Assembly: GCF_036711975.1 (NCBI RefSeq)
Contig: NC_091967.1
Location: 13,764,001 to 13,828,000 of the forward strand
Direction of reading: 5' to 3'
Origin: Onthophagus taurus
Lineage: Eukaryota; Arthropoda; Insecta; Coleoptera; Scarabaeidae
DNA: 64,000 nucleotides
Below the pieces are notes generated by a model. That model did no database searches and was not told the DNA's origin. It saw only the letters and a list, made by a program, of their open reading frames with translations. The position numbers and the translations under genes were made by a program. Positions 38,251-59,200 of this stretch are shown piece after piece (the stretch's first letter is position 1; every line of letters begins with the position of its first letter).

Positions 38251-39250
38251 ATGTCAATCTTAATTGGTAAGTCTTCCATACAATTAAGACCAAGTATATA
38301 CTAATCATTCAATTTTAGAAAAGGTAAAACTAAATCCAGTAGATTTTTCTAAAGCAAACGCCAAAAGAGAGGAAGTCTTTTATCATTTATTCACAAAACT
38401 CAAAGCTGATAGTCAAATAATAACCGAATCAACAGTTCAAACTATCCCACTGAATAAAAATTTAGAGACAAAAGTGTTTATACACGGTTGGAACTCTTCA
38501 ATTCACAAAGGAAATTGGTATGATGGTTTTAAAGATGCATACTTTAAAAGAGGAGATTACAACATTTTGTATGTTGACTGGTTTATACCGGGAAGTCAAG
38601 AATTTCCCGTATCAGCTGCTAATGTAAAACCTGTCGGACATTTTATAGGAGATCTTTTGTTAGCTTCCAAGATTCCATTAGAAAAAATTCATGTTATTGG
38701 TAAATCATTAGGTTCACATGTTGCATCATATGTAGGAAAAAGAATTTTTGAAGTAACCTCAAACAAAATTGCTAGAATAACAGGATTAGATCCAGCCGGA
38801 CCTAAATTTGAACATACAGATCTGAACGAAGACCAAAGATTATTTAAATTAGATGCCGAATTTGTTGATATCGTCCACACAGATGCTGGTTATTACGGGT
38901 TTATTAATCCAATAGGAACAGTTGATTTTTATCCAAATGGAGGAAAAGATCAACCTGGATGTGGAAGTGATGATAGCGGACGTAAGTTTCTCTTTTTTAG
39001 CTTTAAAATTGATTTTAGACGATTATAAATAATTGTAGATAATGACAGTCATGGAAGGTCAAATTGGTTCTTTTTGGAATCGATTAATTCGAAAAATTTC
39101 TTAGCAAGAAAAGCTGAAAGTTGGGAAAAGTACTTAGAAGGAAAATATGAAGATAATGAAGGTGTTGTGTTTGGAGAAGATGTTCCAAAAAATGTTAAAG
39201 GAAATTATTATTTTGAAACTAACTCGAAATATCCATATGCTAAACTATAA
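38251..39250 (+). CDS. lipase 1, pancreatic lipase/PLA1 family, GKSLG variant
   Basis: Alpha/beta-hydrolase of the animal neutral lipase family. Exons 38251-38266, 38319-38981 and 39039-39250; 891 nt, 296 residues. The catalytic triad is intact: Ser135, Asp163 in TGLDPAGP, and His231 in NDSHGRS. The nucleophile elbow is GKSLG, with Lys where nearly all family members have His. VFIHGW forms the oxyanion region. The N-terminus MSILIEKVKLNPVDF lacks a signal peptide, which is unusual for this secreted family. The 16-nt first coding exon is shared with lipase 2, which is also exactly 296 residues with the same splice phases, so they are tandem duplicates. The lid and beta9 loop are short, as in insect phospholipase A1-like enzymes. 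Confidence 0.87.
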
Positions 39251-40307
39251 ATTGAAATATTTAAGTTTATAGCAACACTATTTATTAGAAATTTATAAAT
39301 AAAATAAATATTTTTCTAATTTTTTAGATTTCATTATTGTTGTTGGTTGGGTTGCCTAAGTTAGATATAGATATCAAAATAAAGATTAAGACGCTTGTAG
39401 AAATGTGAGTGTGACTAGAGTTTTAAAATATATAGTATAAAATATGTAAGTGAATGAGATATAAACTAGTTTCAAAAATAAATATAAAAATTTAAATTTT
39501 ACTTCGAATCAAGTAGAGTTAGTTGCATACATCCTACTATTTTCTGTCAAAAATAAAGTGCTACAGATAATCTGGATAATCTAGATCAGTCGTTCAATTG
39601 ATCTAGTTAAGAAGCTATATATATTTATATAGAATGGTACTATCTAAGCAAAATTTTAAGCCGAATAGATAATTTCAACTTATGAAAATAGAATTCGATT
39701 TCATCTCTCTTGAATTGTCATGGATAAGATTAATTATCCATTTGCCAGTTTTTACTGTATCATGAGCAACTAAGATCTTATCTATATCAAAGATAAGATG
39801 CGGACAAGTACTTTGGAAGCTGCTCAGGATTTAGATAATATGGTAAAAGTAATCCTTATGAGGAAACAAAGATGAAGAAGTAATTTATTGATGGATTGAA
39901 TTTGAAAACTGAACATCTATATAGGTAATTAGCTAATGAATACTAAATCTATTATAATAAAAGGTAATTGTTGCAATAAAAATTATACTAAATGGACGTT
40001 TTCACATGGTACCATTAAATGTTTTAGCTAGTAGGATTTTTGAATTCTTTAGTTGATTTAAAAATGTTAATGTTAATTGCAAACAGAACAAATTAACACT
40101 GTTACTTATAAATTAGAAAGATTTTATCCACTTAAAAAAGCTCATCATATAGGTTATGTTTTTATTAAGGTTAAAATATGTTGAAGATTTTATGATTAAT
40201 CTAAAAACCTATCTTTTGCAAATAATTGTGATTATTGTAAGTTAAATTATTTATTTCTTTTTTACAGTTGTATTAAATTATTTAACAGTATTATTAACAC
40301 TAAGAAG
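39251..40307. other. spacer between lipases 1 and 2
   Basis: AT-rich, no ORF. About 40270-40300 aligns with the region just upstream of lipase 1 (TTAA-rich run ending in TAAGAAGATGTCA), consistent with tandem duplication including the 5' flank. Confidence 0.5.
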
Positions 40308-41309
40308 ATGTCAACATTAATAGGTAAGTTTGTAACAAAATTTAAAAGATAACAATTAACATAATCAAATTTTAGATAAAACAAAGCTAATTCCAGTGGA
40401 TTATTCTAAAGCAAACGCTAAAAACCATGAAGTATTTTATCATTTATTCACAAAATCATCAACTGGAAGTCAACTAATATCCAAAACAACCATTCAAACA
40501 ATCCAATGGAACAAATCACTTGAAACTAAAGTGTTCATCCATGGTTGGAAGTCTTCAATGCATAAAGGAAATTGGTACCATGCATTTAAAGACGCCTACC
40601 TCAAGAAAGGCGATTACAACATTTTGTTTGTCGATTGGTTTATACCAGGAAATCAGGAATTTCTTGTAGCAGCAGCTAATGTAAAACCTGTAGGATATTT
40701 CATAGCAGATTTTATATTAGCTTCAAAAACACCATTAGAAAAAATTCATGTTATTGGTAAATCATTAGGATCACATGTTGCATCATTTGTTGGAAAACGA
40801 ATTTTTGAATTAACATCAGAAAGAATTGCTAGAATAACCGGATTAGATCCTGCTGGGCCTACATTTGAGCATGAACATCTAAATGAACAGCAAAGATTAT
40901 GCAAATTCGATGCTGAATTTGTTGATGTTATTCACACAGATGCTGGTTATTTTGGATTTAATACATCGATTGGAACAGTCGATTTTTATCCAAATGGGGG
41001 GAAAAACCAACCTGGGTGTGGAGATGATGATATTGGACGTAATACTTTTTAAATAAACAAATTTTTTGATTTTTTTAAAGATTTTTTATGATTGTAGATG
41101 ATGAATGTCATGGAAGATCTAATTTATTCTTTTTAGAATCGATTAATTCTAAAAATTTTGTTGCAAGAAAAGCTGAAAGTTGGGAAAAATACTTGGAAGG
41201 AAAATACGACGATAACGAAGGTGTTATTTTTGGGGAAGATGTTCCAAAGAATGCCACAGGAAATTATTATTTTAAAACAAATTCAAAACACCCATATGCT
41301 GAGATATAA
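40308..41309 (+). CDS. lipase 2, tandem paralogue of lipase 1
   Basis: Exons 40308-40323, 40376-41038 and 41098-41309; 891 nt, 296 residues, identical architecture to lipase 1. The triad is intact: Ser135 in GKSLG, Asp163 in TGLDPAGP, and His231 in DECHGRS. It shares the Lys in the nucleophile elbow, the missing signal peptide (MSTLIDKTKLIPVDY) and the 16-nt first exon. By eye the two proteins are about 75-80% identical. Retained open frames and triads in both suggest selection for function, possibly intracellular or secreted by another route, unless an upstream exon supplying a leader has been missed. Confidence 0.87.
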
Positions 41310-41354
41310 AAAGAAAGATCTAAAAAATTAAATTTATTAAAAATTAGCAAATTT

Positions 41355-43477
41355 TTAAGTCTTTACAAAGTATATTCCTTGAGCTGATTCCGAAATATTC
41401 TCTCCATAAATAGTTTCGTCAGTCATATCATAAATTTTCCTTCTAACATTTTCCAAACTTTTACATTTCCATCCAATAATATCTCGATTATTTATAGAAT
41501 CCATAAAGTATTTACAACTTTTCCTATGACCATAAAACACTAAAATCAAAACGAAAATTTATTATGTAAACAATAAAAAAGAAAAATCTCACGATATTCC
41601 TGAAAATCATCTTTATTCCATAACACATTCAAATTTGGTGGACGATTTCCGGGTTGAAATCTCGAACCATTAAAATAAAAATCAACCGTTCCAAGCGGTT
41701 TTTTAAATCCAAATAATAAACAATCTGTGTGAGTAATATCTACTAATTCAGCGTCGGTTTGTTGTAGACGAGCCGAATCCGGACAACTAGGTATTTCGAA
41801 TAATTGTTTTGCTGGATCTAAACCGGATATCCTTCCAATTTCTTTTCCCGTTAATCGGAAAGTTTCTTTACCCGCAATTCCCGCGATATGAGCTCCCAAA
41901 GAATGTCCGATTAAGTGAATTCGATTGTGAGACGTTAATCCTGAATCAAGAAGACGAACTATAAACTTTCCAATGTAATTTCCTAAACAAAAAAGAATAA
42001 AAGATGAATCAATTTTAAACATATTCCCATATTTCGAATTAAAGGTTTATTGTATTTAATTAACAGTATGTGGTCAGATATTCTGTAAGATATAATTTAT
42101 TAGTCAATTATATCTCATTGATACAGATTTATTATCAATATAGCTAATATTAAAGGCGAACGATGATATTGTAAGATTATAGATAATTTTGTTTATAAAC
42201 TTGGGTGGCTTTAGACAAAATGTAATCAAATAATTCTTAAAAGACAGTACGACGATGGAAGAAAGCGACAGAATCTTCTAAATTAGATGAATTCATATTC
42301 TTACAAGCTTTAGCAAAACTTTTAGAACAAAAGTTGTAGCAAATTTTATTCTTAACAATATGCCCTTTATCACTTTTGCTCTCAGATGCATCAATATTGA
42401 GAAAGGTACGAAAATATAAAATTTGGATGAATTTGTTGCTTTTAGAAGTTAATGGCAACATTCGAGAAACGGAGTATATTACAAAAAAAACTTTCTGAAT
42501 AATAGTTATAGAAAATTTTATTCTCAACAATATTGCTCTCTTACACTTTTAATCTCGGATACGTCAATATTGAGAAAAATATGAAAACATGAAAATTGGA
42601 TGAATTTGTTGCATTTTCAAGTTGTTAATAGTAACACTTGGGAAACGAAGCATATTATAAAAAAGCTTTTAGAACAAAAGTTATAGCAAATTTTATCCTT
42701 AACAATATTGCTCTCTATCACTTTTGCTGTGAGATGCATAAATGTAGAGAAAAATTATTTTGATTTTTGTAGGATTGCAATATGTTGCAGCTGAAGATTC
42801 ACCTCGAATGAAGACTTTGAAGAATTATATGGAATTAAATTGTGAAGGAATATTTTCATGGTTGATGTTATTAGAAATAAAACTACTTCTACTAATTCAC
42901 TCAAATGGCTTGGGTACTTCTGTAATGGCCATGTTTTTGATATAGCTATTGAGATAGTTTTTGGTACTATTTCGTAAGATGTAATGCTCTATAACCAAGA
43001 AAGTAACCATATTAAAACTTTTCTGCCTTGGTCACAACATCCTTATTTTTGTCCAAATAGCTTGCAATTTTATAATCGTAGCATAGCCATACCAGGTGTA
43101 CCCATTTTATATAATAAAAAAGTATACTATTTACCAACAGAAATTGATGTTTGAATTGCATTAACATATGTTAAACCAGACAATTTTGACCAATCGGCTT
43201 GAATAACATTACAATTTCGCTTTTGCAAGTATTTTTCCATTAATTCTACGTAATGCGAAGTACATTTGGATTCGAGCCAACCATGTACGATCAATTTAAT
43301 GGGTAAAGGTTCCAAATAACAATCTTGAGGACCATGACACGTACGATTCTGTATTTTTCGCGTAGTTAAAGCAAAATGAACGTCGCCCGTTTTAATCGGT
43401 TTATCACGAGGAATCAAGAATTGTGATTTCCAAAAATTTTTCAAATTCAATTTCGTATATAAAATTTTTTTATGCAT
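41355..43477 (-). CDS. lipase 3, canonical GHSLG type
   Basis: Exons 43477-43135, 41982-41593 and 41539-41355; 918 nt, 305 residues, in phase. The nucleophile elbow is GHSLGAH, the Asp lies in SGLDPAKQL, and the triad His is in GHRKSCKYF, so it should be catalytic. LPIKLIVHGW gives the oxyanion strand. The start is uncertain: the frame stays open upstream to a non-ATG, and the first Met in frame (HKKILYTKL) gives no convincing signal peptide, so a 5' exon may be missing. The 1.15-kb first intron contains a 175-bp tandem array. It is divergent from lipase 4, with start codons about 130 bp apart. Confidence 0.8.
42240..42765. repeat. 175-bp tandem array, inverse orientation of the Gr-intron array
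   Basis: AACAATAT(TG)C words recur at 42354, 42526 and 42701 (periods 172 and 175). The units are the reverse complement of those at 31997-32700, sharing ACAATATTGCTCTC, ATGAATTTGTTGC and GAAACGGAGTATATTA. About three copies. No transposon termini were seen at the edges. Confidence 0.75.
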
Positions 43478-43604
43478 AACGAAAGAAAATTTTTCTGTTT
43501 TCTCGATACAATTTGAGGTTTCGTTTGTTTTAACGTCACTTTTCAAAATATTTTGTCATCTAATCATCTCTCATAAAAATTATTAAAAAAATTTAAAAGT
43601 AAAA

Positions 43605-44751
43605 ATGGCAACGGGTGAAAAGTTAAGTATCCAACCAAGATGTTGCGGAAAAATGTGTAAGAATGATCAAGTTTTTTTATTAAAATTATATTTTTATTGA
43701 TTATTTTTTTGTAGCAAGACACATCTTTAAAGTTAAAAAAGTGGATTTTTCGATAGCTGATTGTAAACTAGACGATGTTAAATACAAGGTTTACAGAAAT
43801 AATTCAGACGAGGCGGTACCTTACACTGAAGATACGATAAAATCAGCTGAATTAGACCTCGATCTTCCTTTTACGGTTTTAATTCACGATTGGTTATCTA
43901 ACGGGGATTGTTATTGGTATGAACCATTTCGAAAAGCACTTTTCCAAATAGGGCAGAATAACTTGGTCTGTGTCGATTGGTCAATTTCCGCCGCAAAATA
44001 TTACGATATGGCGGCGGCTAATTCAAAATATGTTGGGGGATTTATTGCAGATTTTATACTCGCTTCAAAAGTTGACATAAAAAAAGTACACGTAATAGGA
44101 CATTCATTAGGCGCGCAAGTAGCCGGATTCGTTGGGAAAAGAATCTTTCAACGAACATGTGAAAAATTGGCCAGGATTACGTTATCCGATCCTTCAGCAT
44201 TAGGTTTTGAACTGCCTACCGTTAGAAACGATGAAAAAGCGTACGAAGAAGACGCTGATTTTGTTGATGTTATTCATTCAGATATGGGCCATTATGGATG
44301 TATTGATCCAGTTGGTCACGTTGATTTTTATCCAAATGGTGGTAAAGAACAACCAGGGTGTCCAGAATTATGTGATGACGGTACATTAAAAATCAGTTTT
44401 AAGGTGGTTAAAAAATAATTTTCTTTTTAATTTTTTTGAGATGACTGTAGCCGCTCAAGAGCGATTTTATATTTCATCGAATCGATCACAAGCGATGAAT
44501 TTAAGTCTGCCCCAAGTGAAAATTTTGATGAATTTATAGAAGGAATTTTCGCCGAGGAAGATATTATTGTTTTTGGTTATAATTGTCCAACAGAAGCGAG
44601 AGGAGTACACTATTTTGCAACGAATGAAACTCCGCCATATGCTCAAGGCGATATATATCCAAAAGTTTTCAGTGACGCTTCGGATGATGGGGAAGAAGGT
44701 GATCAGGGTGAGGAAGGTGAAGAAGGTGATCAAGGTGAAGGAGGCGAATAG
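43605..44751 (+). CDS. lipase 4, probable catalytically dead lipase homologue with acidic tail
   Basis: Exons 43605-43656, 43715-44380 and 44441-44751; 1029 nt, 342 residues. Ser148 (GHSLGAQ) and Asp176 (TLSDPSAL) are kept, but the triad His position in the C-S-H-x-R-S motif is Arg244 (DCSRSRAIL). The oxyanion H-G-W has also become H-D-W (LIHDWL). Loss of the His base should abolish hydrolysis. The C-terminus adds about 25 residues of Glu/Gly/Asp repeats (GDQGEEGEEGDQGEGGE) absent from the paralogues. The N-terminus (MATGEKLSIQPRCCGKM) has no signal peptide. Open frame and clean splice sites suggest it is expressed, as a binding or storage protein perhaps. It is tail-to-tail with lipase 5. 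Confidence 0.82.
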
Positions 44752-44829
44752 GATTAAAAGTTTGAAATTTAATGAATGTTTTTTGAAGGTAAAATAAAAG
44801 CGTTTTATACATTTATTGCAATAAGAACA

Positions 44830-45856
44830 TTATTTTATTTGTGCAAAAGGAGGATTATCATTAGTTATGAAATAATAAACACCCCTAGCTTGAAAATCAA
44901 CATTTTCCCCAAAAGTAACGTTTTTACTATCATTTCCACAATTTACTTCTTTAAAATTCTCCCAAGATTCACAACTTGTAGCAATAAAATCATTTGAATT
45001 TATTGATTCTATGAAATATAAATTACTTCTCTTGTGGCTACATTTATCGTCGATTTGTAAAAGTGGACAACCAGGTTGTGAAGAACCACCGTTTGGATAA
45101 TAATCAATCATTCCAATCGGTTTTTCGAATCCATAATTTCCAACATCAGTATGAATGATATCAACAAATTCGGCGTCTGTGTCTGCCAAACGGAATTCGG
45201 ATGTCATGTTTGATGCTTCAAACATTCGACCACTAGGATCTGTTCCGGTTATTCTTCCTAACTTTTTTGAAGTTTTCTCATAAATTGATTTTCCAATAAA
45301 TCCAGCGACATGCGACCCTAAACTGTGTCCGATTACGTGTACACTTTCAAGATGAAAATTTCCAGCTATGATAAAATCCGCTATAAATTCGCCGATTGGT
45401 TTTGAATTAGCCGCGGATATTTGAAATTCGTTACTTCCAGCTTTAGACCAATCGATGTAGATTATGTTACAATCAAAATATTTTTTAAAGTATTCATTTT
45501 TTATCGGTTCATACCAATTAGTTGTTTCATTAGACATCCAACCGTGAATAACAATTATTGTTGGAGCATTCGCAATTAAAATCGAGTCAGAAACAGTTTC
45601 TTCTGTTAAATATTGCCCTTCGGAAACATTTTTTGTAAAAACGTGGTAAAGAACGTCCGTTTTTTTGGCATCTGCTAGTATAAAATCAACACCGGGGAGA
45701 TAACCATACTTTTTAACACCTAAATAAAATTAAAGCAGTTAAAAAAATTTGTTGATGCAGCCAATTATAAGACTTACCATTATAAACGTAGGAATTCGTT
45801 AAAATAAAACAATAAATTATTAAAATAATAGTACAAAACAATGATGATTTATTCAT
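44830..45856 (-). CDS. lipase 5, secreted, canonical triad
   Basis: Exons 45856-45778 and 45719-44830; 969 nt, 322 residues. The signal peptide is clear (SSLFCTIILIIYCFILTNS). The triad is present: Ser159 in GHSLGSH, Asp187 in TGTDPSG, and His255 in KCSHKRS. Four or more N-x-S/T sequons (NVSE, NETT, NMTS, NVTF) suggest glycosylation. It lacks the last intron found in lipases 1, 2, 4, 7 and 8. About 90% identical by eye to lipase 6 with identical length and intron, so a recent duplicate. An alternative Met lies one codon upstream. Confidence 0.9.
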
Positions 45857-46689
45857 CATAAGTTTTAACTTTACAATAGTCATATTATAACTTGAAAATG
45901 TAATGAAATATAGTGGGTAAGGCAAAACAAGGAATTCATTTATTCTATTTTAATGGGAAATTCATTTACAGTCGTTTGATATGTTTTAAAAATCAATTTG
46001 TGGTAAACAACACAAAAACGTAAGCACATAATGATATATTATTTGACTTTTTTGCTATAATTTGACCTTTACCAATTTTATTTTACAGATCAGAGAAGAT
46101 TTATTTTAACAAGATCTTTAAGGAACTTTACGTGTTCGAGCAAGGTAAGCAAGAAGTCCAACAAGAAGTCTTGTAGTACGCAGGCCAGCTTATATCTTGA
46201 TGACTCCCTTATTACTACCTTGCGTTTAGCTTTTGAAGTAGAGATAGCCATGGTTTAGGCCTTCTGAAAATAGTATTTAATCTTTTTCCAACAGTATCTA
46301 TTAGCAATATCTAGTCTCCTACCGATACTATAGTCTTTTACTAGCAGTATGTAGTCTCCTGGAAATAGCATCTATACTTTTGCCCACAGTATCTAGTCTC
46401 CTATCGATACTACAGTCTTCTGCCATAGCTTTGTAGAGACAAAACGTCATACTTAATTATAGCTTTGTTTTGCTTATGGCTTATAAACTCCAGTTATTTG
46501 AGTTTTAGATAGGAAAATGTTGTAAAATTGATCAAATAACTAATCCAATATCTTTTAGACTTGAGGTATTTAAAACCAAGTGAGTTAAATTCATTTTTTG
46601 TTACAATTTTGAACTACACATACTTACTGTCTAAGCAACGCTGATGAATTAACTTAAAATGGCAGAGAATGTCCAGGGTCCAAGATAAT

Positions 46690-47330
46690 TCTTCCACCAA
46701 CTGTATGCTTTCTTTAATGGGGTTGGTTTGTCTTTAGCTATCGGAAGGGCGTTTCGAATTTTGCTAACTGTACCGTATTGTACCACTATATCATTCTTTT
46801 TCAGACAACTTGCGATCCGTTCCATTACAGAAACATAAAGGAGGCAGATAAAACCGGCTGGTCCAGTACTTACCGTGTCTTTCTTCTGCTTGCGTTTTTG
46901 GTGTCTCGTTAATATCCCTCAGAGTGTAGCCATTCTTCTGGAGTACATTTAGAAATTCTTTTCCTTTCTTGAAATTATTTTCGTCATACAACCTTTCTGG
47001 GCGTTGGAACAAGGCTTGAAACTGATCTATTCTGTTGTGGATGGTGATATTAATTTACGGAAAATTACGGAATTTTCGTTATTCAAACATCTCCATGTAG
47101 AAAATGGCGATACCGGGGACAAAGGTCCCTCCACATTGCTTGTACAATTCTTGCTCCCAATTAAAATAAGTAGATAAACATACTTCGGTAATCCCTCTGG
47201 GATGAGTTTCTGGCAAAGACCATCCTCGGAATGTTTAACTGCTACTCAGGCAAATGGAGATTTCACATCGAAATATACCGGGATATTCTGATCCAAATTC
47301 ATTATTTTGGTTGTTTCCACAACGCTAGTG
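46690..47330 (-). mobile_element. retroelement relic, probably Penelope-like
   Basis: Minus-strand pieces read RPERLYDENNFKKGKEFLN, LQKNGYTLRDINETPK, then CLKKNDIVVQYGTVSKIRN and AKDKPTPLKKA, resembling the region between the reverse transcriptase and the GIY-YIG endonuclease of Penelope-like elements. It is fragmentary and broken, and occupies the place where the 5' part of a duplicated lipase 4 would be expected. Confidence 0.5.
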
Positions 47331-47344
47331 CTAATTCAATTCAA

Positions 47345-47500
47345 TCCGGAAGTTTAAGGCTTTGTACTTATAGAACAAAATAATTTGATCTGTGTCGATT
47401 GGTGATATAATAGAGGATGATGGTGAAGAATGTGTTTAGGATGAGGAAGGAGATCTGGAACCAGATGTCATAAGCCATAGAAGAATACAAGCATTTTATA
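47345..47500 (+). pseudogene. relic of a second lipase 4 copy
   Basis: Two short blocks align collinearly with lipase 4: AATTTGATCTGTGTCGATTG matches the codons for NLVCVDW, and, after an internal deletion, GAGGATGATGGTGAAGAATG matches the acidic tail. The following GCATTTTATACAC also matches the lipase 4 3' flank (GCGTTTTATACAT). The 5' half and most of the catalytic core are gone. It sits tail-to-tail with lipase 6, just as lipase 4 does with lipase 5, so the ancestral pair was duplicated as a block and this member decayed. Confidence 0.65.
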
Positions 47501-47567
47501 CACTTTTTTTATACTCTATCATTAAAAACAAGAATTTTCTAACTAAGTCTAAATTATACATTACAAT

Positions 47568-48595
47568 TTATTCTATTTGTGCAAATGGAGGATTATCATT
47601 AGTTATAAAATAATAAACCCCCCTAGCTTGAAAATCAACATTTTCCCCAAAAGTAACGTTTTTACTATCATTTCCACAATTTCCTTCTTTATACTCCTCC
47701 CAAGATTCACAGCTTGTAGCAATAAAATCATTTGAATTAATTGATTCTATGAAATATAAATTGCTCCTTGCGTGGCTACAGTTATCGTCGATTTCTAAAG
47801 GTGGACAACCAGGTTGTGAAGATCCACCGTTTGGATAATAATCAATCATTCCAATCGGTTTTTCGAATCCGTAATTTCCAACATCAGTATGAATGATATC
47901 AACAAATTCGGCGTCTGTGTCTGCCAAACGGAATTCGGATGTCATGTTTGATGCTTGGAACATTGGACCACCAGGATCTGTTCCGGTTATTCTTCCTAAT
48001 TTTTTTGAGGTTTTCTCATAAATTGATTTTCCTATAAATCCAGCTACGTGTGAACCTAAACTGTGTCCGATTACGTGTACACTCTCAAGATGAAGTTTTC
48101 CCGCTATAATAAAATCCGCTATAAATTTGCCGATTGGTTTTGAATTAGCCGCAGATATTTGAAATTCTTTACTTCCAGCTTTAGACCAATCGATGTAGAT
48201 TACGTTGCAATCGGGATATTTTTTGAAGTATTCATTTCTTATCGGTTCATACCAATAAGTTGTTTCATTAGAGAGCCAACCGTGAATAACAATTTTTGTT
48301 GGAACATTTACAGTTAAGATTGAGTCAGAAACGGTTTCTTCCGTTAAATATTGTCCTTCGGACACGTTTTTTGTAAAAACGTGGTATAGAACGTCTGTTT
48401 TTTCGGCATCTGCTATTGTAAAATCAACACCGGGGAGAAAATCATATTTCTTATCACCTAAAAAATTTAAGAAATTAAAAAAAAGACATGATTAATGTAA
48501 CAATTATAAGACTTACCATTATAAACGTAGGAATTCGTTAAAATAAAACAATAAACTATTAAAATACTAGCATAAAGCGATGATGATTTATTCAT
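47568..48595 (-). CDS. lipase 6, secreted, recent duplicate of lipase 5
   Basis: Exons 48595-48517 and 48457-47568; 969 nt, 322 residues. Signal peptide MNKSSSLYASILIVYCFIL. Triad Ser159 (GHSLGSH), Asp187 (TGTDPGGP) and His255 (NCSHARS). VIHGW forms the oxyanion region and PNGGSSQPGCP the beta9 loop. The protein and even the UTR flanks closely match lipase 5. As a digestive or hemolymph neutral lipase or phospholipase A1 it would be secreted; the short lid predicts phospholipase rather than triglyceride preference, by analogy only. Confidence 0.92.
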
Positions 48596-49066
48596 AATAT
48601 AGTATTTAACTTAGCAATATTTAGTTATAAATATAAGTTGAATACGTAACGAAGCTACGTAACAAGGAATTTGCTTACGTTACTCGTGTTGTTACACCAC
48701 AAATAGATTTTTAAAACCTGTAAAACTGTTTCAAATGAACATTTTCGTTAACATAGAATAAACCAACAATCATGCAGTTTTTGACTTTTAGCAAAAATAT
48801 AATAAATATAATTTGACCTTTATCACTCTTATTTTATTATAGATTAGATAAGATTTATTTTATTAATTTATTAGATTATTAACTTCATCTATGTTGACGT
48901 CAAATTAAGGATATTTCATGACAAATGTTATTAAAGTTAAACTATTTCTTGTTATTATCAAATCAATTCCATCAAATCACTTTATTTATATTCATGATTA
49001 CTTTGTTTGTTTCCTTTCACTTCAAATCATTCCTTTTATTAACTCCTCAAAACTATAAAGAAAAAA
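48596..49066. promoter_or_regulatory. shared upstream region of lipases 6 and 7
   Basis: Divergent genes about 470 bp apart. AT-rich. The proximal 280 bp matches the lipase 5 upstream flank. No specific motif recognised. Confidence 0.4.
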
Positions 49067-50173
49067 ATGTTTAACCAACATTCTTTCAAGCTAACATATT
49101 GCATCATTTATTCTTTTACAAGTATTTATTTTCTAAATCTAAATCGTTCAATTAATAATTTTTTTTAGTTCAACTGTCTTATTGCGATTCAAATCCAATA
49201 AACGAAGCTTTTGATTATTGGAAGAACATTCTTGAAGGTTCAAAACGTTTTCTAGGAACTGTAAATGAAAAAGACGTCCAATTCGTTTTATTCAACAAAA
49301 AATTTGATGAAATCTTTTTAGATGCGACTCAAGATAACATTTATCAATTTTTTTTACCCGAAATCGAAACGAAATTTATTGTTCACGGTTGGGGTGAGTC
49401 TCGATTTCGGCCTTATTACAGAACTTTAACTGAAGAATACACCAAGAAAGGTGACTATAACATCGTTCATGTTGATTGGTCAAAAGTAGCAAGTGTTGAA
49501 TATAACGTAGCTGTTGAAAATACTTTTAAAGTAGGAAAGATCTTAGGGGAGTTTATAACTAAGTTGTTAACTAGTAATATTACAACGCATGAAAATGTTC
49601 ATTTATTGGGACATTCTTTGGGGGGACATATTGTTGGTGTTAGTGGGAAAGAAATTTTTAAGCTTACTGGATTAAAAGTTCGAAGAATCACGGGATTAGA
49701 CCCAGCTGGACCATCTTTTGAAATCCCACCGATTGAAATTCAAAAAAGGTTAGACAAACATGATGCTGAAATGGTTGATGTTGTTCATACAGATGGGGGA
49801 ATTTTTGGATTTATGGAACCACTTGGAACTGTCGATTTTTATCCTAATGGTGGAAAAGGTCTCCAACCTGGATGTTCGTTATTTAAAATTTCGATTCCAC
49901 CTACAATTAAATCAGCCACAGATTATGGTAATACAAAAAGAAAATTTAAGTTAGAATATTATTATTGAGTTAATTTAATTTTTATTAGCATTTTGTAGTC
50001 ATACAAGAAGTTATATTTACTTTATAAATTCGATTAATGAAAAAATGATCGCTAAAAAATGTAATTCTTGGGCGCAATTTCAAAATGGTGATTGCGATGG
50101 AAATGAAAATGTTGTTTTTGGAGAAGATGTACCTTTTAAAGCTACAGGAAGTTACTTTTTAAGTATTGTTTAA
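49067..50173 (+). CDS. lipase 7, canonical triad
   Basis: Exons 49067-49121, 49169-49927 and 49989-50173; 999 nt, 332 residues. The N-terminus is hydrophobic (FKLTYCIIYSFTIQLSYC), compatible with a signal peptide. Triad Ser168 in LLGHSLGGH, Asp196 in TGLDPAGP, and His276 in FCSHTRS. KFIVHGW gives the oxyanion strand and PNGGKGLQPGC the beta9 loop. The last exon begins at the A-F-C-S-H block, the same intron position as in lipases 1, 2, 4 and 8. It is more diverged than the 5/6 pair. Likely secreted. Confidence 0.88.
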
Positions 50174-51475
50174 ACAATGTTTTTGGTACATTTGTTTTGT
50201 TAAAATTAAAAGTAATTTAATGATACCTACAACTTTATTTAGTGTTTAGAGTCCTTCTTTAGTTTCAGTTGAGTGTTTCCATTAACAAACTCGATTTATG
50301 TGAAATACAAGCTTATTTTGCACAAAATATTTTTTTTTTTAAATTACTTACTTAGCTTTATCACAGTTTTTTATACAGCCAAAAGGTTATATATTTGGAT
50401 GTAGCTATGTTCCACTGGTTTCTGAAATCATCTACTAGTTGATTGACACCATGAAAGCAGTATACAAGCTCTGGATACTGGAACATATTACTATAAATGC
50501 TGTATCTAACAGCTGAATACCGAAATCATCCCGGGAGTCTGGAATCATGTATAAAATATATTAGAGTCATCTATTAGAGAATGCTGGAATCATCCAGAAG
50601 GTGCTAGCATTATCCAGTATATACTGATATCATCTATCAGATGCTGGAACAATCTGAATACTGAAGCTAATTACTGCATTCCATAACTGAATGTTGAAAT
50701 CAAGTACTTACAGGACATTGGAATCATCCAGAAAAAACTGGAATCATCGAGGGCATACATACACCTACAGAGTAGTGTACTGTAGAGTAGGTTGGAATAA
50801 GGTTGGATAGAGATAGGTTGGGTTGGGTTGGGTCTCACATAAAAAAGGTCTCCAAAAAGCAGGAAGCTTAATGCCTTCTCAGGCGTTACGCCCAAGGTTA
50901 GAGGTCCTAGTCAAAAAAGAGAAAGTTAAAAGCCACGGTTATTCTGACTGTGCTTTTATATGCTGACTCGGTTACCAGATGCTGGATCGATCTAAATTTA
51001 ATTACTGCATACAACAGTTACTAGAAATCAAGCACAACACACTGAAATCATCTAAAAAATACTAGAATTATCCAGAAAATACCGCATAACACCAAAATGG
51101 CAATACCGTTAAGCAGATTACCTAATTAGAGTTTAGAACAAACTCTAAAAATGGCTTACAGAAAACATAAAATATTAATAATTGAAAATTTCATAAAATA
51201 AACACATTTCGTAATCTTAGATGGCAAGAAAATACAATCTGACATATTTAACTAATTTTTAAATTGTATGATTAATAGAGGGCAGCTTAATGGTTTGCCA
51301 AAAATTAATATCATAAATAAGTAATTGAAACTCCAAAAAAAACACTAACAGGATGTTATAAATCACGTGAATTTATAATATGATAAAAAATTGAACAAAG
51401 GAAATTAATTTATAATGTATAATGGCAAAATAATAACTATAGTTATTTCAATTTTATATACAGTTTTGTTTCACA
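50174..51475. other. spacer with degenerate minisatellite
   Basis: 50390-51080 is a decayed tandem repeat (listed). A TTGGG triplet lies at about 50814-50831. No gene. Confidence 0.5.
50390..51080. repeat. degenerate ~20-bp minisatellite
   Basis: Words such as CTGGAATCATC, GAAATCATC and GAAATCAAGTAC recur every 18-25 bp on the plus strand, broken by a unique segment at about 50755-50960. Much decayed. Confidence 0.55.
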
Positions 51476-52576
51476 ATGAAGAACATTGCGATATTTATGC
51501 CAACGTGTTTATTGTTTATTTTTATTATTTGTAAGTATGTTGTAAAATATTTGTTTGGAATGATGTAATTATATTAAATTAATTCGATTTAAAGATGCAA
51601 ATGGATTGTTGGAAGAAATTTTGCGGAACGACATCTTTAAAATAATCAATAAAATCCCATTTAATTTTACCCGTTTTATCTTCAACAACATCAAAATGAA
51701 CGAAAGCGACGTTACCTATTTTTTTATAGTAGAAAATTTAAAAATATAAAATTCAATTCTAAATATATTAATCCAAATTATTCACTTAAAGTTCTTATTC
51801 ATGGTTGGACTGAACACGCAACGGTTCAATGGTATACAAACGTAATTAATGCTTATTTAAAACGTGGATATTATAATATAATAGCTGTCGATTGGTCTTC
51901 AAAAGGTGATGCTGATTATTTATCGGCTTCAAGATACACTAGAGGAATAGGAGAAAAAATCGGGATATTCTTAGTAAAGTTACACAAAAGAAAAGGAATT
52001 CCGTTAAAGAATATCCATTTGTTATCGCATTCTCTAGGTGCTCATGTTTGCGGATTCGTAGGAAAAAAAATTTATGAATTAACTGGTGACAAAATCGGGA
52101 GAATAACCGCGATGGATCCTGCAGCACCTTTATTTGAAATTACACAAGATATGAGATTATCAAAAGAAAATGCAAAATTTGTTGATGTGATTCATACGGA
52201 TGGTGGAATGTTAGGATTTAGACATCCAATAGGAACAGTAGACTTTTTTCCAAATGGTGGATCAGCAATTCAACCTGGATGTTCTTTATTAAAAGCCGAT
52301 CTCCACTATGATGATTGTATGGTAATGGGATGAAAATTTATGTTTGATAATTCTTTTTGGGTATTTGTAGTTTTTTGTAGTCATGCTAGTAGTCATCGAC
52401 TCTTCATTAAATCAATAAACCACAAAAAATTTTTTGCCAAAAATTGCGAATCCTATGAACAGTTTTCAAGAGGGTTATGTAGAAATAAGAAAACAATTTT
52501 TTTTGGGGAAGATACCCAAACGAATGCAACAGGCTCTTTTTATTTTCAAACCAAAGATACCGACATCATTTTGTAA
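51476..52576 (+). CDS. lipase 8, one apparent frameshift
   Basis: Exons 51476-51530, 51595-52316 and 52371-52576. Signal peptide MKNIAIFMPTCLLFIFII. Exon 2 changes frame in a T7 run (51719-51725). With one more T the reading SDVTYFFYSRKFKN continues into LKVLIHGW, and the total becomes 984 nt, 327 residues, with all splice phases correct, so a consensus error or a very recent mutation is likely. The nucleophile elbow is SHSLG rather than GHSLG. The Asp is in AMDPAAP, and the His region reads CSHASSHR, lacking the usual C-S-H-x-R-S arginine spacing. Activity is therefore doubtful but not excluded. Confidence 0.78.
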
Positions 52577-53248: not shown

Positions 53249-56200
53249 TTAATTTTGTGGTGCAACATTATTAGAAACTTGAACTTCTTCATCTTCTTCT
53301 TCGTTGCTATCGGTATTTTGTTCTTTTACTTCATCAACTTGTCCAACCAAAGCCCGATATTTTTTAGCGATTGCTTCCCAATCGGTGACATGTTCTATTC
53401 GGGTCGTTTGAGCTGAAAAACTCAATTGGGAACCTAAAGGACTTAAATGAGCTACCGATAGCGTTGTTGATTCTTTCGGACCGACTTGGTTGCCCTTTTT
53501 TACTTTTGATAACCATTTTTGGCCCGCTTTCGATCTCGGGCTTAATTGTTGAGGACGTTGAAAACCACCCATAATGTGTACAAGGCTTGTTCTTTTCTTG
53601 GCACGAACTAAAATATTTGATGTGTGTTAGTAAAAAAAGGATAATTCTTGGTTTTTGATTTTTACCTCTACTTTTACACAGTTTTACTAAATAAAATAAC
53701 CATGTTGTTATTAAATTTATGGGGGATGGGGCTGAGGTTGTTCTGTGCATCGATCTGATGAGTTTACTCAAACCAAATTTCCATTCAATGTCGGATTGGG
53801 CCTAATTTTTTGAAAAATTTTTGTGAATAATGAGTAATTAAGATAAATTAAACAGAAAAGTGCAAAATTTTTTTGATGGTAATCTTTAACGGTTGCTTAC
53901 AGTTCGGTTGTTTGTTGAACTGATTATGGAAAGAAGTCGGTAATGGGTTTTCTTCTATTTTGTGCTTATGTGCAGGTTTATGTACAAGTGATGAGTGGTA
54001 AAAAGTGCCAAATCTAAAAATTGTAAATATGATATGATGAAAAATTTATCAAAAAAAGTATTTATTTTGTTCCCTTTTTAAAATATTATAAATATAACAT
54101 TTATTCAGTGCGAAATGGTCCAGCCCAAATGAACTGGTGCAAAGAAGCTCCTTTGGATTACATCCGAAAATTCTTTATTTTTTTTTTCAGTTCAACTTTC
54201 TGTCTTCCATAATTCCGCTGGAATCTTTTTCTACATTGATAATCGTTTATTTTATGCGTGCTGGTGTCGATTCTGGCTCATTTATTTTTTTATAGATATA
54301 TTTTTATCCGCCTTTTATTATTTTTGTTACCTGAATCTTCTGGTACGTATCCGTCATCATAGCGATGAGCAGTTTGACTAGGACAACGACCGAAATGGAC
54401 ATGTACGCTCCGTATATCATCTTAAAGAACACGATGGTCCAGAATGGTTGCGTCACTTCGTCAAGCTTTAGGTGACCAAGATTAGACTGGCCGAAAATAG
54501 CGAAAAATAGCAGCCCGAAAGCATTGAGAGAGTTCGTTTGGACTGGAATAGAGAGAGAAAAAGATGCAAGTGATTACCTGAATGCGCTGATAGGTGTCAG
54601 ACATCATAGCAATTAGCAGATTGATCAGTACAACCACTGATACCAACATGTACACTCCGAAGACCACCTTGAAGAGGTTTTCGGTCCACTGTGGTCTGTA
54701 AGCTGGTTCTCCTGCTGGCGCTTTTATCGTCACATCATCGTATGTCGTCTGGCCGAAAATGGCGAAAAACAAACGTTCGAACGCCACCAATGGACTCATT
54801 AACACTGGATTAAGGGGCAAAGAAAAAACAAGAAACGTGTAAATTTTTTTTTCTTTTTTCTCTGATTTTTTAACGATTTTTGATTTCAAGAAAGAAGATT
54901 AAAGGCTTCATGCTTGTTTGTTGAACTGTATTTACAACGATGCCAAGAAGAGAGAAGAAATGATTTCGAAATTTAAAAAAAATTGCAATCTTTTTTGTGT
55001 TTTTGAACATACAAACCTTCAATTTTTTAATATTAACGTGTTATGTTTAAAATGTAATGATACTAATATCTACACAAAAAATTTGTTGCGTAAAGCAAAA
55101 ATGTTACAGCAATTATAAAAAGCTTGTTAAAAAAGTATTTACAAATTCAAAACCATGAAATCATATTTTTTTTTTGATTTCCTGCGGAAAAATTAAAGGA
55201 TACATAAAAAACATGGCAAGACAAAGACGACACACACAGACAAAACGTTGTTTCTTCTAATGAAGTGGGCACAACACAGAAAAAATCTATTTCTTTTTAC
55301 GATTTGTTTTGTTTCGGTCTCCTTTGAAACAAATAAAAACACACAAGACATACAATGAGGACGTTTTCACAGTTATTATTTTTATGGTGGCTTAATTCAA
55401 AATAATGCGGAGCCACGAGAACACATATTTAACACAAGGACAACAATAAATATTGTTAACAAAGATATTGATAACAATAAGACCACAGCACGCAGATTTA
55501 TGGACTGACTTACTATCTCCAGACACTTCGGGTTGGGAGTATTTCTTGCGAAGAGACCCGCGTGGTCTAACTCCAGCTGGACGCTCTTCAATGTCATCGA
55601 GAAGTTCGATTGTTGATTCTCTTACCGCTATTGTCGTTTTAAAATTTGAATATCAAATATGAAAATATGTATAAAATTAGTAATAACGTTCTGTACAAAT
55701 CATGTATAATGGAAAATTATGCTTAATAAATTTAAATGTTAATATACATATTATGTACAAGATGTGGAAACTATACAAGAAGTGTTAGAAAGTACAAAAT
55801 TTTCAAATCATTTTATATACACTCATACAAGAAAGAAGATATAAAAGTATTTTTTATATACAGCAAAAGAAATAAATAAATAAATATTGATACAAACTTA
55901 CCTCCATCAAAACTTTTCGCTGAAGCAACTGTTCTTCCCAAGTTCTTAACTTCACTGTCTTTGTAGTTATCGAACCGTTGATTCAACGCAACGAAATGCA
56001 TAGAAAATCCAAACACAAAGATGGCTAAAACGGCCAAAAATCGTCCCAAATCTTTCATCAAATTTCCAATGATGATGGCCCACGGTCCAAAAAGGTGGTG
56101 AAACGACAAAAAGTCCAAAATTTGTACACAAGCCAATAAAAACGATAACGCGAATAATTGATTTCTGCAATACATCAATGTTGGCCAATAATTTATTTTG

Positions 56201-59200
56201 ACCAGTTCGGCGAGTCCAAGCAAATGAGCTGCGACGCCGAAAATTCCGAAAAGAAGTACGGAAAGTTTTATCCAACCCAATCCGGATTTGTCACTTGGGT
56301 TGGTTAATTCGAATAATAAAAGTCCACTAAGCCATATCAAAAGAACCCATTCGTACCAGTATGGAAGTAGGCTCGGTCTGACAACTGGATAAATAGGAAA
56401 AATGGCCACGAGCAAAAGGAAGAGCATGAGATAAACGTGGGATGTTAAATAGGACATAAATTTTATAATAGGTACTTTATGGTATTTATGGCCTAATGGA
56501 AGAGTAAAAGCCAACCAAATTGGTGGGCAAATAATAAATCCTACAAAAAGGAGCATCGTTCTCCACGCCGTCCAATTAAGTGGTCCTCTCCAAAGTTCCT
56601 GTAAACGATAATAATTTATTTAAACGAGTTTGAGCCAACAGATAAAATTACCTAATCTTTACCTGAAGATATCGTTGAACAACTGTATGCGCAATAACTT
56701 CTTTTTGTTCATTCTCAATTAAGACATCTAAAAATTCCACATTTCTTCTATCAGTAGCCGTTAACACTCTTCCAGCAGAATCAGCCCCTGCAGCCAATGC
56801 TAACAATTCGGTAGCCATAGCTTCACAATGTTTTCCAGCAGCTATTAAATCCTTAGCCCGTTCTTTTTCTTTAGTTGACAAATTAATCAAAATATTCGAC
56901 AACTTCGCAGCGGTATCAACTGGAGCCGGCGAAACCAAAACAAACTCCTCAATCGGTCGATTATTATGATTTTTCGAGCACACCATTAAATTATAAACGA
57001 ATCTCCTATCTTCCATCAAATTGTACGTATCGTGTTCTTTAGACATCAAGTACTCTAATACATCATGGTGACCTTCAGAAGCGGCAAACCAAATCGGAGC
57101 ACATCCGAGATTCGTTTCCGATTTCGGGGATGCACCGGATTCCGTTAAAAGCTTAACAACTTCGAAACAACCTGCCCTTGAAGCGTAATGTAGCGGCGTC
57201 CAACCGTTTTTATCAGTAGCGTTAATCTCCGCACCTTGACCTAAAGAACGAAAGCGGTATTGATTTTAGTTAGAGATTAAGTTAATTTAACTTTGATTTA
57301 ATAGCCAATTTGGTGTATAATATACATATTATATATTTTTTGAAATGATACATACCTAAAAGAACTTCAACCATCTGGTAGTGACCATTTGTTGCTGCTA
57401 TATGAAGACCTGTTTTTCCATGTTTGTCATGACTTTGAAGAAGTTCTGCTGATCTGCTTAAAAGGAGACCAACAACTGTTGTATGGCCACCAAAACAAGC
57501 TAAATGCATTGGGTTGTAACCCTAAAAAAATTTAAATTAATTAATGAACCATATTAAAAAGATAATATTATTACATTTTCATGTGTTGATGCATCAACTT
57601 GAACTCCAGCAGAATTCAACAATAATCTAACTACGTTTTCATTTCCAGAGAACGCTGCAAGATGTAACGGAGTCATTCCGGATTCGCTTCCAAGTGTTGG
57701 CACAAGCGAAGCACCAGATGGTGCATCAGATTTTACAGTTCCTGGGACATGTGCCAACAATTCCCGAACAGTATCAGCTTGTCCAAAATAAGCTGCTACA
57801 TGTAAAGGGGTAACTCCCAGTTTCTTACTGGTGACCCTTAAAGAATTTGATGATCTCAGTACTTCCAAAACTTGACCATGCCCGTTTTTCGCAGCTAAAT
57901 GCACTGCTGTAAATCCATTTTTGTTTTCATCGGTAACATTAGCCCCCGCTCTAACTAAAGCTTTAACGACTTCTGCGTGACCCCCTTCAGCTGCGATCTG
58001 AAGCGCTGTGGCGTCGGTTAATTTATTTCTGGCGGTTATAACTCCAGTTCTATCGAATTTCATTAATTCTTCGATGACGGTAACACTTCCTTGGGCTGCG
58101 GCGATGTGTGCGCAAGTATTACCATCTTTAGTTGTGGCCATCACCAAACTGGGATGTTGTTGAAGAAAAAGTTTAGCTACTTCGGAGTAGTTGTTTTGGG
58201 CTGCCGCGTGAATCGGTTTTTGTCCTTGATCATCAGTTGCATCGATGTTAGCTCCTAAATCCAAAAGAAGTTTGCAAACTTCGATTTGTCCAGCAGCTGC
58301 TGCAAGATGTAACGGAGTTTGTTTCTTTAATGTTAAAATGTCGATTACCGCGTTATGATCTTTGATTAGAAATTTCACTAAATCAGTATAACCGTTCATA
58401 GCGGCTAAATGTAAAGCTGTTCGTCCGTTTCTTGATTTTGAATTAATGAAAGCTTTGTTGGAAAGTAATGAGTCGCAGACTTGGATGTATCCTTTTTCGG
58501 CGGCTAGATGCAAAGCTGATCGACCGTCGTTATCAAAAACATCGACTCTCGCATGGTTCATTAAGAGGTTATTAACCAACTCGTAATGTCCACGATTTGC
58601 TGCAATTGATAAAGGTGTCCAACCAATTGCTGATTGCCTGTTTAAAGCTTTTTGTGTTTCAGTAACCGTCATGTGTGAAATCATCTCGATCAATACATCA
58701 TTATTTCCAGCTACAGCCAAATAATGAAACGCTGATTCATGGGCTGGTTTTGCAACCAACTTAACATCGGCTCTATTTTCCAAAAGAATCTTTACAACCT
58801 CTTTATCAGCATTAGGAAATTCCACTTCATCCTTCGTTACCGTACAAATATAATGCAAAGCGCTTTCATCGTTGTTATTTAATTCATTAACGTAGGCGGT
58901 TACTTCATCTTCGCCTTTTTGGGTTTTAACATAATTTATGAGATGTTGAACAACATCTGGTCGACAACCTTTACATGCAAGATGAAGGGCGGTTTCACCG
59001 TGTTTATTTTTGTACTGAGGATCGCCCCCATCTTCTAGAAGTAAAAGTAAAGTTTGAAGATTTCCGTGTCTTGCTGCAACATGAACCGGAGTTTGCCCTT
59101 CTTCCGTTATTAAATTTGGTCCTGCACCCGATTTTAGAAGCATCAAAGCGCATCTTTCACCATCTTTTACTCTTGCTGCTATATGTAATGGTGTTTCTTT

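What the first reader, a model, noticed from the sequence alone, without database searches (positions are those of the whole stretch)
54331..54804. Two nompC pore exons forced to be mutually exclusive by a 35-nt gap
Exons b (54804-54578) and a (54542-54331) each encode pore helix, filter and S6, enter at phase 1 and leave at phase 0. The segment between them is GT...AG but only 35 nt, well below the length a spliceosome can handle. Including both would also shift the frame. Steric exclusion is an established mechanism for mutually exclusive splicing; its use to swap the pore of the main insect mechanotransduction channel is the notable point. I cannot say whether it is already described.
Basis: partly seen in the sequence, partly recalled or inferred. 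Interest (0 to 1): 0.85.

Follow-up and report, generated by a model that had tools for sequence, protein, structure and literature searches.

The report
Two alternative pore exons in nompC
An insect touch- and hearing-channel gene carries two back-to-back versions of the exon that builds the ion pore, apparently too close together to be spliced into the same message, so the animal probably makes two kinds of channel, but no RNA data were available to prove it.

Summary
On the minus strand of a nompC (TRPN) gene, exons b (54804-54578) and a (54542-54331) each encode pore helix, filter and S6, entering at phase 1 and leaving at phase 0. The 35-nt gap is GT...AG. Exactly one exon must be used: both, neither, or a retained gap gives an early stop. 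In this genome 28 modelled P450 introns are 46-145 nt, median 55, and published fly minima imply about 50 nt, so b-to-a splicing is very unlikely.

Exon a is an old, constrained copy: 52% protein identity to b, intact splice sites, dN 0.37 against saturated dS of about 2. It evolves faster than b, and the S6 gate asparagine (TRPV1 N676) is lysine. That residue is N in b and in the 8 other TRP-type pores found in this genome, and Q in the solved fly isoform.

Best reading: a real mutually exclusive pair, enforced sterically and by frame. Expression and conservation in other insects were untestable here. Seven searches on nompC/TRPN splicing showed no description, but key papers are not held. 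Known mechanism, new member; the gate lysine is the most interesting part.

The parts
55902..56598 (-). Upstream nompC exon: S1-S5 and the start of the S5-pore linker, ending at phase 1
   Evidence: Open frame homologous to 5vkq; acceptor side, donor GAG|GTAAGT (one search had proposed a poorer donor 12 nt upstream)
55514..55627 (-). Candidate cassette exon, 114 nt, phase 1 to 1, 38 residues in the S5-pore linker; use unproven
   Evidence: Open and in frame with either pore exon, AG and GT borders, GC 0.50 against 0.27 in the introns
54578..54804 (-). Pore exon b, 227 nt, phase 1 to 0; N at the S6 gate position (codon AAT, 54622-54620)
54543..54577 (-). 35-nt GT...AG gap holding exon b's donor and exon a's pyrimidine tract and acceptor
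54331..54542 (-). Pore exon a, 212 nt, phase 1 to 0; K at the S6 gate position (codon AAA, 54375-54373)
53666..53801 (-). Shared downstream exon with the TRP-helix region, starting at phase 0
   Evidence: Joins in frame to either pore exon; homologous to 5vkq

Best explanation
Exons b and a are a genuine mutually exclusive pair that arose by tandem duplication of one exon. A message takes one of two routes: upstream exon (with or without the candidate cassette) to b to the TRP-helix exon, or the same with a in place of b. Shown from sequence: homology, matching phases, intact splice sites, and that only one-of-two keeps the frame. Inferred: the 35-nt gap is too short for b's 5' splice site and a's branch point to be used together, so U1 on b's donor and U2 near a's acceptor exclude each other; leaks shift the frame and would be removed by nonsense-mediated decay. 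Inferred: choosing a gives a mechanotransduction channel whose pore differs in its outer loop and has a lysine at the S6 gate. Not shown: use of a in any tissue, or what selects it.
For: Exact anatomy and phases. Only one-of-two keeps the frame; both, gap retention and neither stop early. 28 modelled P450 introns of this genome, from 22 of 40 regions given to the script, run 46-145 nt with median 55; nompC introns in the window are 53 nt or longer. Fly minima in PMC5762160 and the proposed threshold of about 50 nt in PMC7969005. Constraint on a: 82 of 213 aligned bases differ, at codon positions 23/21/38, NG86 dN 0.373, dS 2.00; charging every replacement to a and giving it half of dS, the ratio is below 1 in all 233 usable bootstraps of 300 (median 0.47, 95% range 0.21-0.87; 67 failed); in the last 32 codons dN is 0.18 and dS 1.48. 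Exon a keeps 5 of the 6 TRP fingerprint residues of this region. GC 0.46 in a, 0.47 in b, 0.27 in surrounding introns.
Against: No RNA evidence. No relative from another species could be fetched. Exon a evolves faster than b: taking the fly protein as reference, 15 columns are unique to a and 4 to b (p 0.012-0.019). It has lost the gate asparagine, and TRPV1 N676 mutants are reported as non-functional or unresponsive (PMC9242649). dS is saturated, so recent relaxation cannot be excluded. The codon-usage signal of a in its own frame is weak (0.07 per codon against 0.01 in one reverse frame).
Confidence: 0.72

Rival explanations
1. Exon a is a fading duplicate: still spliceable on paper but rarely or never used, with b the only functional pore exon.
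For: Faster change in a (15 against 4 unique columns), a five-residue shorter outer pore, lysine in place of the gate asparagine that is N in b and in 8 of 8 other TRP-type pore places in this genome.
Against: 71 open codons although only 8% of random copies at that distance would be stop-free; intact splice sites; dN well below dS, also in S6.
Confidence: 0.22
2. The two exons are not strictly exclusive: some messages contain both, or retain the gap, giving a deliberately truncated or decay-prone product that lowers channel output.
For: The gap is GT...AG with a pyrimidine tract, and introns down to 25 nt exist in the fly annotation used by PMC5762160.
Against: Both products stop shortly after exon b, before the TRP helix; no intron under 46 nt among the 28 modelled.
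Confidence: 0.04
3. Exclusivity is set mainly by competing RNA structures or splicing factors, and the short gap is incidental.
For: Structure-based exclusion is described for insect Dscam1 (title and abstract start of PMC8042237 in the listing).
Against: No unusual folding in the 101 nt around the gap (z -0.08, 84 of 200 shuffles fold at least as well); longer-range pairing was not tested.
Confidence: 0.02

Closest known systems
Drosophila NOMPC (TRPN), PDB 5vkq isoform L
   Same: Same gene family; the channel half with exon b matches over 458 residues, E=5.2e-188.
   Different: The solved protein shows one pore, with Q at position 1551; here there are two pore exons, with N and K. Whether the fly gene has a second pore exon was not testable here.
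Mutually exclusive exons enforced by steric interference (human OGDH 4a/4b in PMC7969005; 57 of 629 human clusters potentially so in PMC5740500)
   Same: Too little room between the first exon's donor and the second exon's branch point; combined inclusion often breaks the frame (passages).
   Different: Here the whole intervening segment is 35 nt; OGDH has a longer intron with distant branch points. No branch point is mapped here.
Ion channels with spliced pore segments (CaV1.2 exons 8/8a, TRPM3 pore variants; recalled)
   Same: Splicing alters pore-lining sequence of a cation channel.
   Different: Here one exon swaps pore helix, filter and S6 together, in TRPN.
GluA2 Q/R site (recalled)
   Same: A switch between a neutral and a positively charged pore residue.
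   Different: Made by RNA editing there; here it would be made by exon choice, and at S6 near the gate.

Membership tests
Mutually exclusive exon cluster (criteria as in PMC3228551, passages) | Neighbouring homologous exons of similar length (within 20 residues) | tested here: met
   52% identity over 71 residues; 227 and 212 nt
Mutually exclusive exon cluster (criteria as in PMC3228551, passages) | Same reading frame and compatible GT/AG splice sites | tested here: met
Mutually exclusive exon cluster (criteria as in PMC3228551, passages) | One and only one of the exons in mature messages | not testable with these tools
   No RNA data; frame logic alone demands it
Steric-exclusion subtype | Donor to branch-point distance below the splicing minimum | tested here: met
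   The whole gap is 35 nt against fly minima of about 35 plus 15 nt and a 46-nt minimum among 28 modelled introns; holds for a branch point inside the gap
Steric-exclusion subtype | Mapped branch point, and b+a products when the gap is widened | not testable with these tools
   Needs lariat mapping and a minigene
TRPN / NOMPC | Ankyrin-rich N-terminal part and six-helix TRP channel orthologous to fly NOMPC | tested here: met
   Channel part: 5vkq, 628.5 bits. Upstream open frames read as ankyrin repeats by eye; no domain search was run on them
Group I TRP pore fingerprint in the exon region (PMC9242649, passages) | F1501, aromatic 1541, N1551, L1553, I1554, A1555 (fly numbering) | tested here: inconclusive
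   Exon b 6 of 6; exon a 5 of 6, with K for N1551; the 5vkq protein itself has Q there

The most novel reading that the evidence does not exclude
Exon a is a conserved, regulated isoform whose lysine at the S6 gate puts up to four positive charges three residues before the I1554 constriction. It would make a poorly conducting, less calcium-permeable or dominant-negative subunit, so that splicing sets the gain or selectivity of insect mechanotransduction, much as the Q/R site does in glutamate receptors (analogy recalled).
Probability: 0.22. Interest if true: 0.8.

Novelty: new member of a known kind. Interest (0 to 1): 0.52.

Why it matters
NOMPC is a principal mechanically gated channel of insect touch, proprioception and hearing (established knowledge). 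A splice choice that replaces the whole pore would give one gene two transducers and would make pore properties testable in vivo by removing either exon. The asparagine-to-lysine difference at the gate gives a direct electrophysiological prediction.

Tried and rejected
Relatives in other genomes: genome contigs (126 pattern matches, none confirmed) and viral contigs (81, none confirmed) gave no insect nompC, so there is no cross-species test. Structure prediction was not run. A local RNA structure at the gap is not supported (z -0.08). Order of the insect: six TCAGG telomere units gave no match, but that search skips simple repeats, so it says nothing.

Orthology of the fly isoform-L pore: it agrees with b against a at 15 columns, with a against b at 4, and differs where a and b agree at 4. 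It is closer to b, and the age of the duplication is not settled. I first suspected that isoform L might carry the a-type exon (shared N, L, T and Q columns, and a non-N residue at 1551); the column counts do not support that. From memory I thought the fly might also have a second pore exon; this was not checked and is not used.

Literature: ten searches were answered. Seven included nompC or TRPN with splicing or exon terms (4, 9, 10, 11, 12, 19, 55); no title, abstract start or passage that I saw describes alternative pore exons in nompC. Listings were cut (20 of 27 papers; 25 of 44; 20 of 2,186; 15 of 18), and most listed papers were not opened. Of the papers opened I saw passages only. Hatje and Kollmar 2013 (asked for by a DOI from memory), Jin 2017, Cheng 2010 and Yue 2013 are not held. 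So 'not described' is weak.

Limits of the intron sample: regions were chosen from P450 matches and favour short introns; introns were recovered in 22 of 40 regions; in-frame introns without stops may be missed; 3 of 28 rest on one query each. Some boundaries are ambiguous: L024 came out at 47 nt and 59 nt, L025 at 64 and 52, and one of the two close L017 introns (46 and 49 nt) may be spurious. One lipase intron has 69-, 60- and 45-nt candidates, and one lipase pair gave none. The + coordinates printed for plus-strand lipases are wrong by construction; the lengths are right. In the dN/dS bootstrap 67 of 300 resamples failed.

Full report
What is there. The window is C2:13764001-13828000 of a 290.8-Mb assembly in 33 contigs. 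Its right end holds a nompC (TRPN) gene on the minus strand: exons that read as ankyrin repeats, the channel exon 56598-55902, two pore exons, then the TRP-helix and tail exons. The channel and tail, with exon b, match Drosophila NOMPC isoform L (5vkq) over 458 residues, E=5.2e-188. Exon b is 54804-54578 (227 nt), exon a 54542-54331 (212 nt), and the 35 nt between them begin GTAATC and end TTCCAG. Both exons cover pore helix, filter and S6. Searches of the assembly with exon a and with exon b plus its context found no other nompC-like pore.

One and only one. Both exon lengths are 2 modulo 3 and sit between a phase-1 donor and a phase-0 acceptor. In virtual transcripts b alone and a alone remain open, also with the candidate cassette; b+a, b+gap+a and neither stop early.

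Is 35 nt too short here? I modelled introns in cytochrome P450 genes of the same genome. Of 40 regions given to the script, 22 yielded 28 introns, 46 to 145 nt, median 55; a first pass on 20 regions gave nine, 47 to 64 nt. nompC introns in the window are 53, 58, 64, 115, 208 nt and longer. One lipase intron has a lower-scoring 45-nt alternative. [quoted passage not shown] it also shows that the fly annotation used held introns down to 25 nt. PMC7969005 (passages) cites a proposed threshold of about 50 nt. In the gap the adenines lie 3, 4, 7 and 13 nt into it, apart from one 7 nt and one 2 nt from its end, so a branch point there would overlap or crowd b's donor. It could also lie inside exon b. 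This is inference; no branch point is mapped.

Is exon a alive? It is 52% identical to b in protein and differs at 82 of 213 aligned bases, at codon positions 23/21/38. NG86 gives dN 0.37 and dS 2.0, the latter saturated. Charging every replacement to a and giving it half of dS, the ratio is below 1 in all 233 usable bootstraps of 300 (67 failed), median 0.47, 95% range 0.21-0.87. In the last 32 codons, mostly S6, dN is 0.18 and dS 1.48. Base composition is exon-like (GC 0.46 against 0.27), and codon usage scores 0.07 per codon, above the best of 166 overlapping intronic stretches (-0.08) but barely above one of a's own reverse frames (0.01). Against full function, a changes faster than b: with the fly protein as reference, 15 columns are unique to a and 4 to b (p 0.012-0.019). 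So a looks constrained for much of its history but is the derived copy.

The odd residue. PMC9242649 (passages) counts N676 of TRPV1, position 1551 of fly TRPN, among lower-gate residues, 93.7% conserved; TRPV1 N676A is listed as non-functional and N676F as unresponsive to temperature and agonist. PMC8186909 (passages) places the NompC constriction at I1554. Exon b has N at 1551, codon AAT; exon a has K, codon AAA, one base apart. The 5vkq protein has Q, although the PMC9242649 table gives N for TRPN. Eight other places in this genome matched exon b's region at E<=1 (overlapping loci counted once), and all eight have N. Lysine would place positive charge next to the gate. Whether it blocks, retunes or spoils the channel is unknown.

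A further isoform. A 114-nt phase 1-1 segment at 55627-55514, in frame with both pore exons, looks like a cassette adding 38 residues to the linker between S5 and the pore helix. Four pore-domain isoforms are therefore possible on paper.

Comparison with the known. Mutually exclusive exons are common, and steric enforcement is an established subtype (57 of 629 human clusters potentially, PMC5740500 passages). Splice variation in pore segments is known in other channels (recalled). No description of alternative nompC pore exons appeared in the listings and passages that I saw. PMC3228551 and PMC3923563, on predicting and cataloguing such exons, do not contain the word nompC in their main text. 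PMC7143563 and PMC6137742 report splice forms of other insect TRP genes in the passages I saw. The fly catalogue most likely to list such a pair is not held. I therefore judge it a new member of a known kind, with modest certainty.

Verdict. The claim that the animal actually swaps its mechanotransduction pore waits on RNA. The lysine makes that test worth doing.

Noticed in passing
window 55627-55514 (-): Candidate in-frame cassette exon (114 nt, 38 residues) between the S1-S5 exon and the pore exons, which would lengthen the S5-pore linker.
   Followed up: partly
PDB 5vkq residue 1551, equivalent to window 54622-54620 and 54375-54373: The solved fly NOMPC isoform has Q where the TRPN consensus in PMC9242649 has N, so this gate position varies in TRPN more than the family table suggests.
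   Followed up: partly
window 38330-52576: Cluster of lipase-like genes on both strands beside nompC, including two copies about 90% identical in protein (45729-44830 and 48491-47568).
   Followed up: no
L008 and L009 (G000:C6:6866115-6866444 and 6869903-6870226, +): Two neighbouring long open frames (837 and 846 codons) carrying TRP-type pores, about 4 kb apart, with no stop in the frame.
   Followed up: no
L017-L056 (P450 regions of the same genome): Very short and uniform introns, median 55 nt in the 28 modelled, so this is a short-intron genome where a 35-nt gap stands out.
   Followed up: partly
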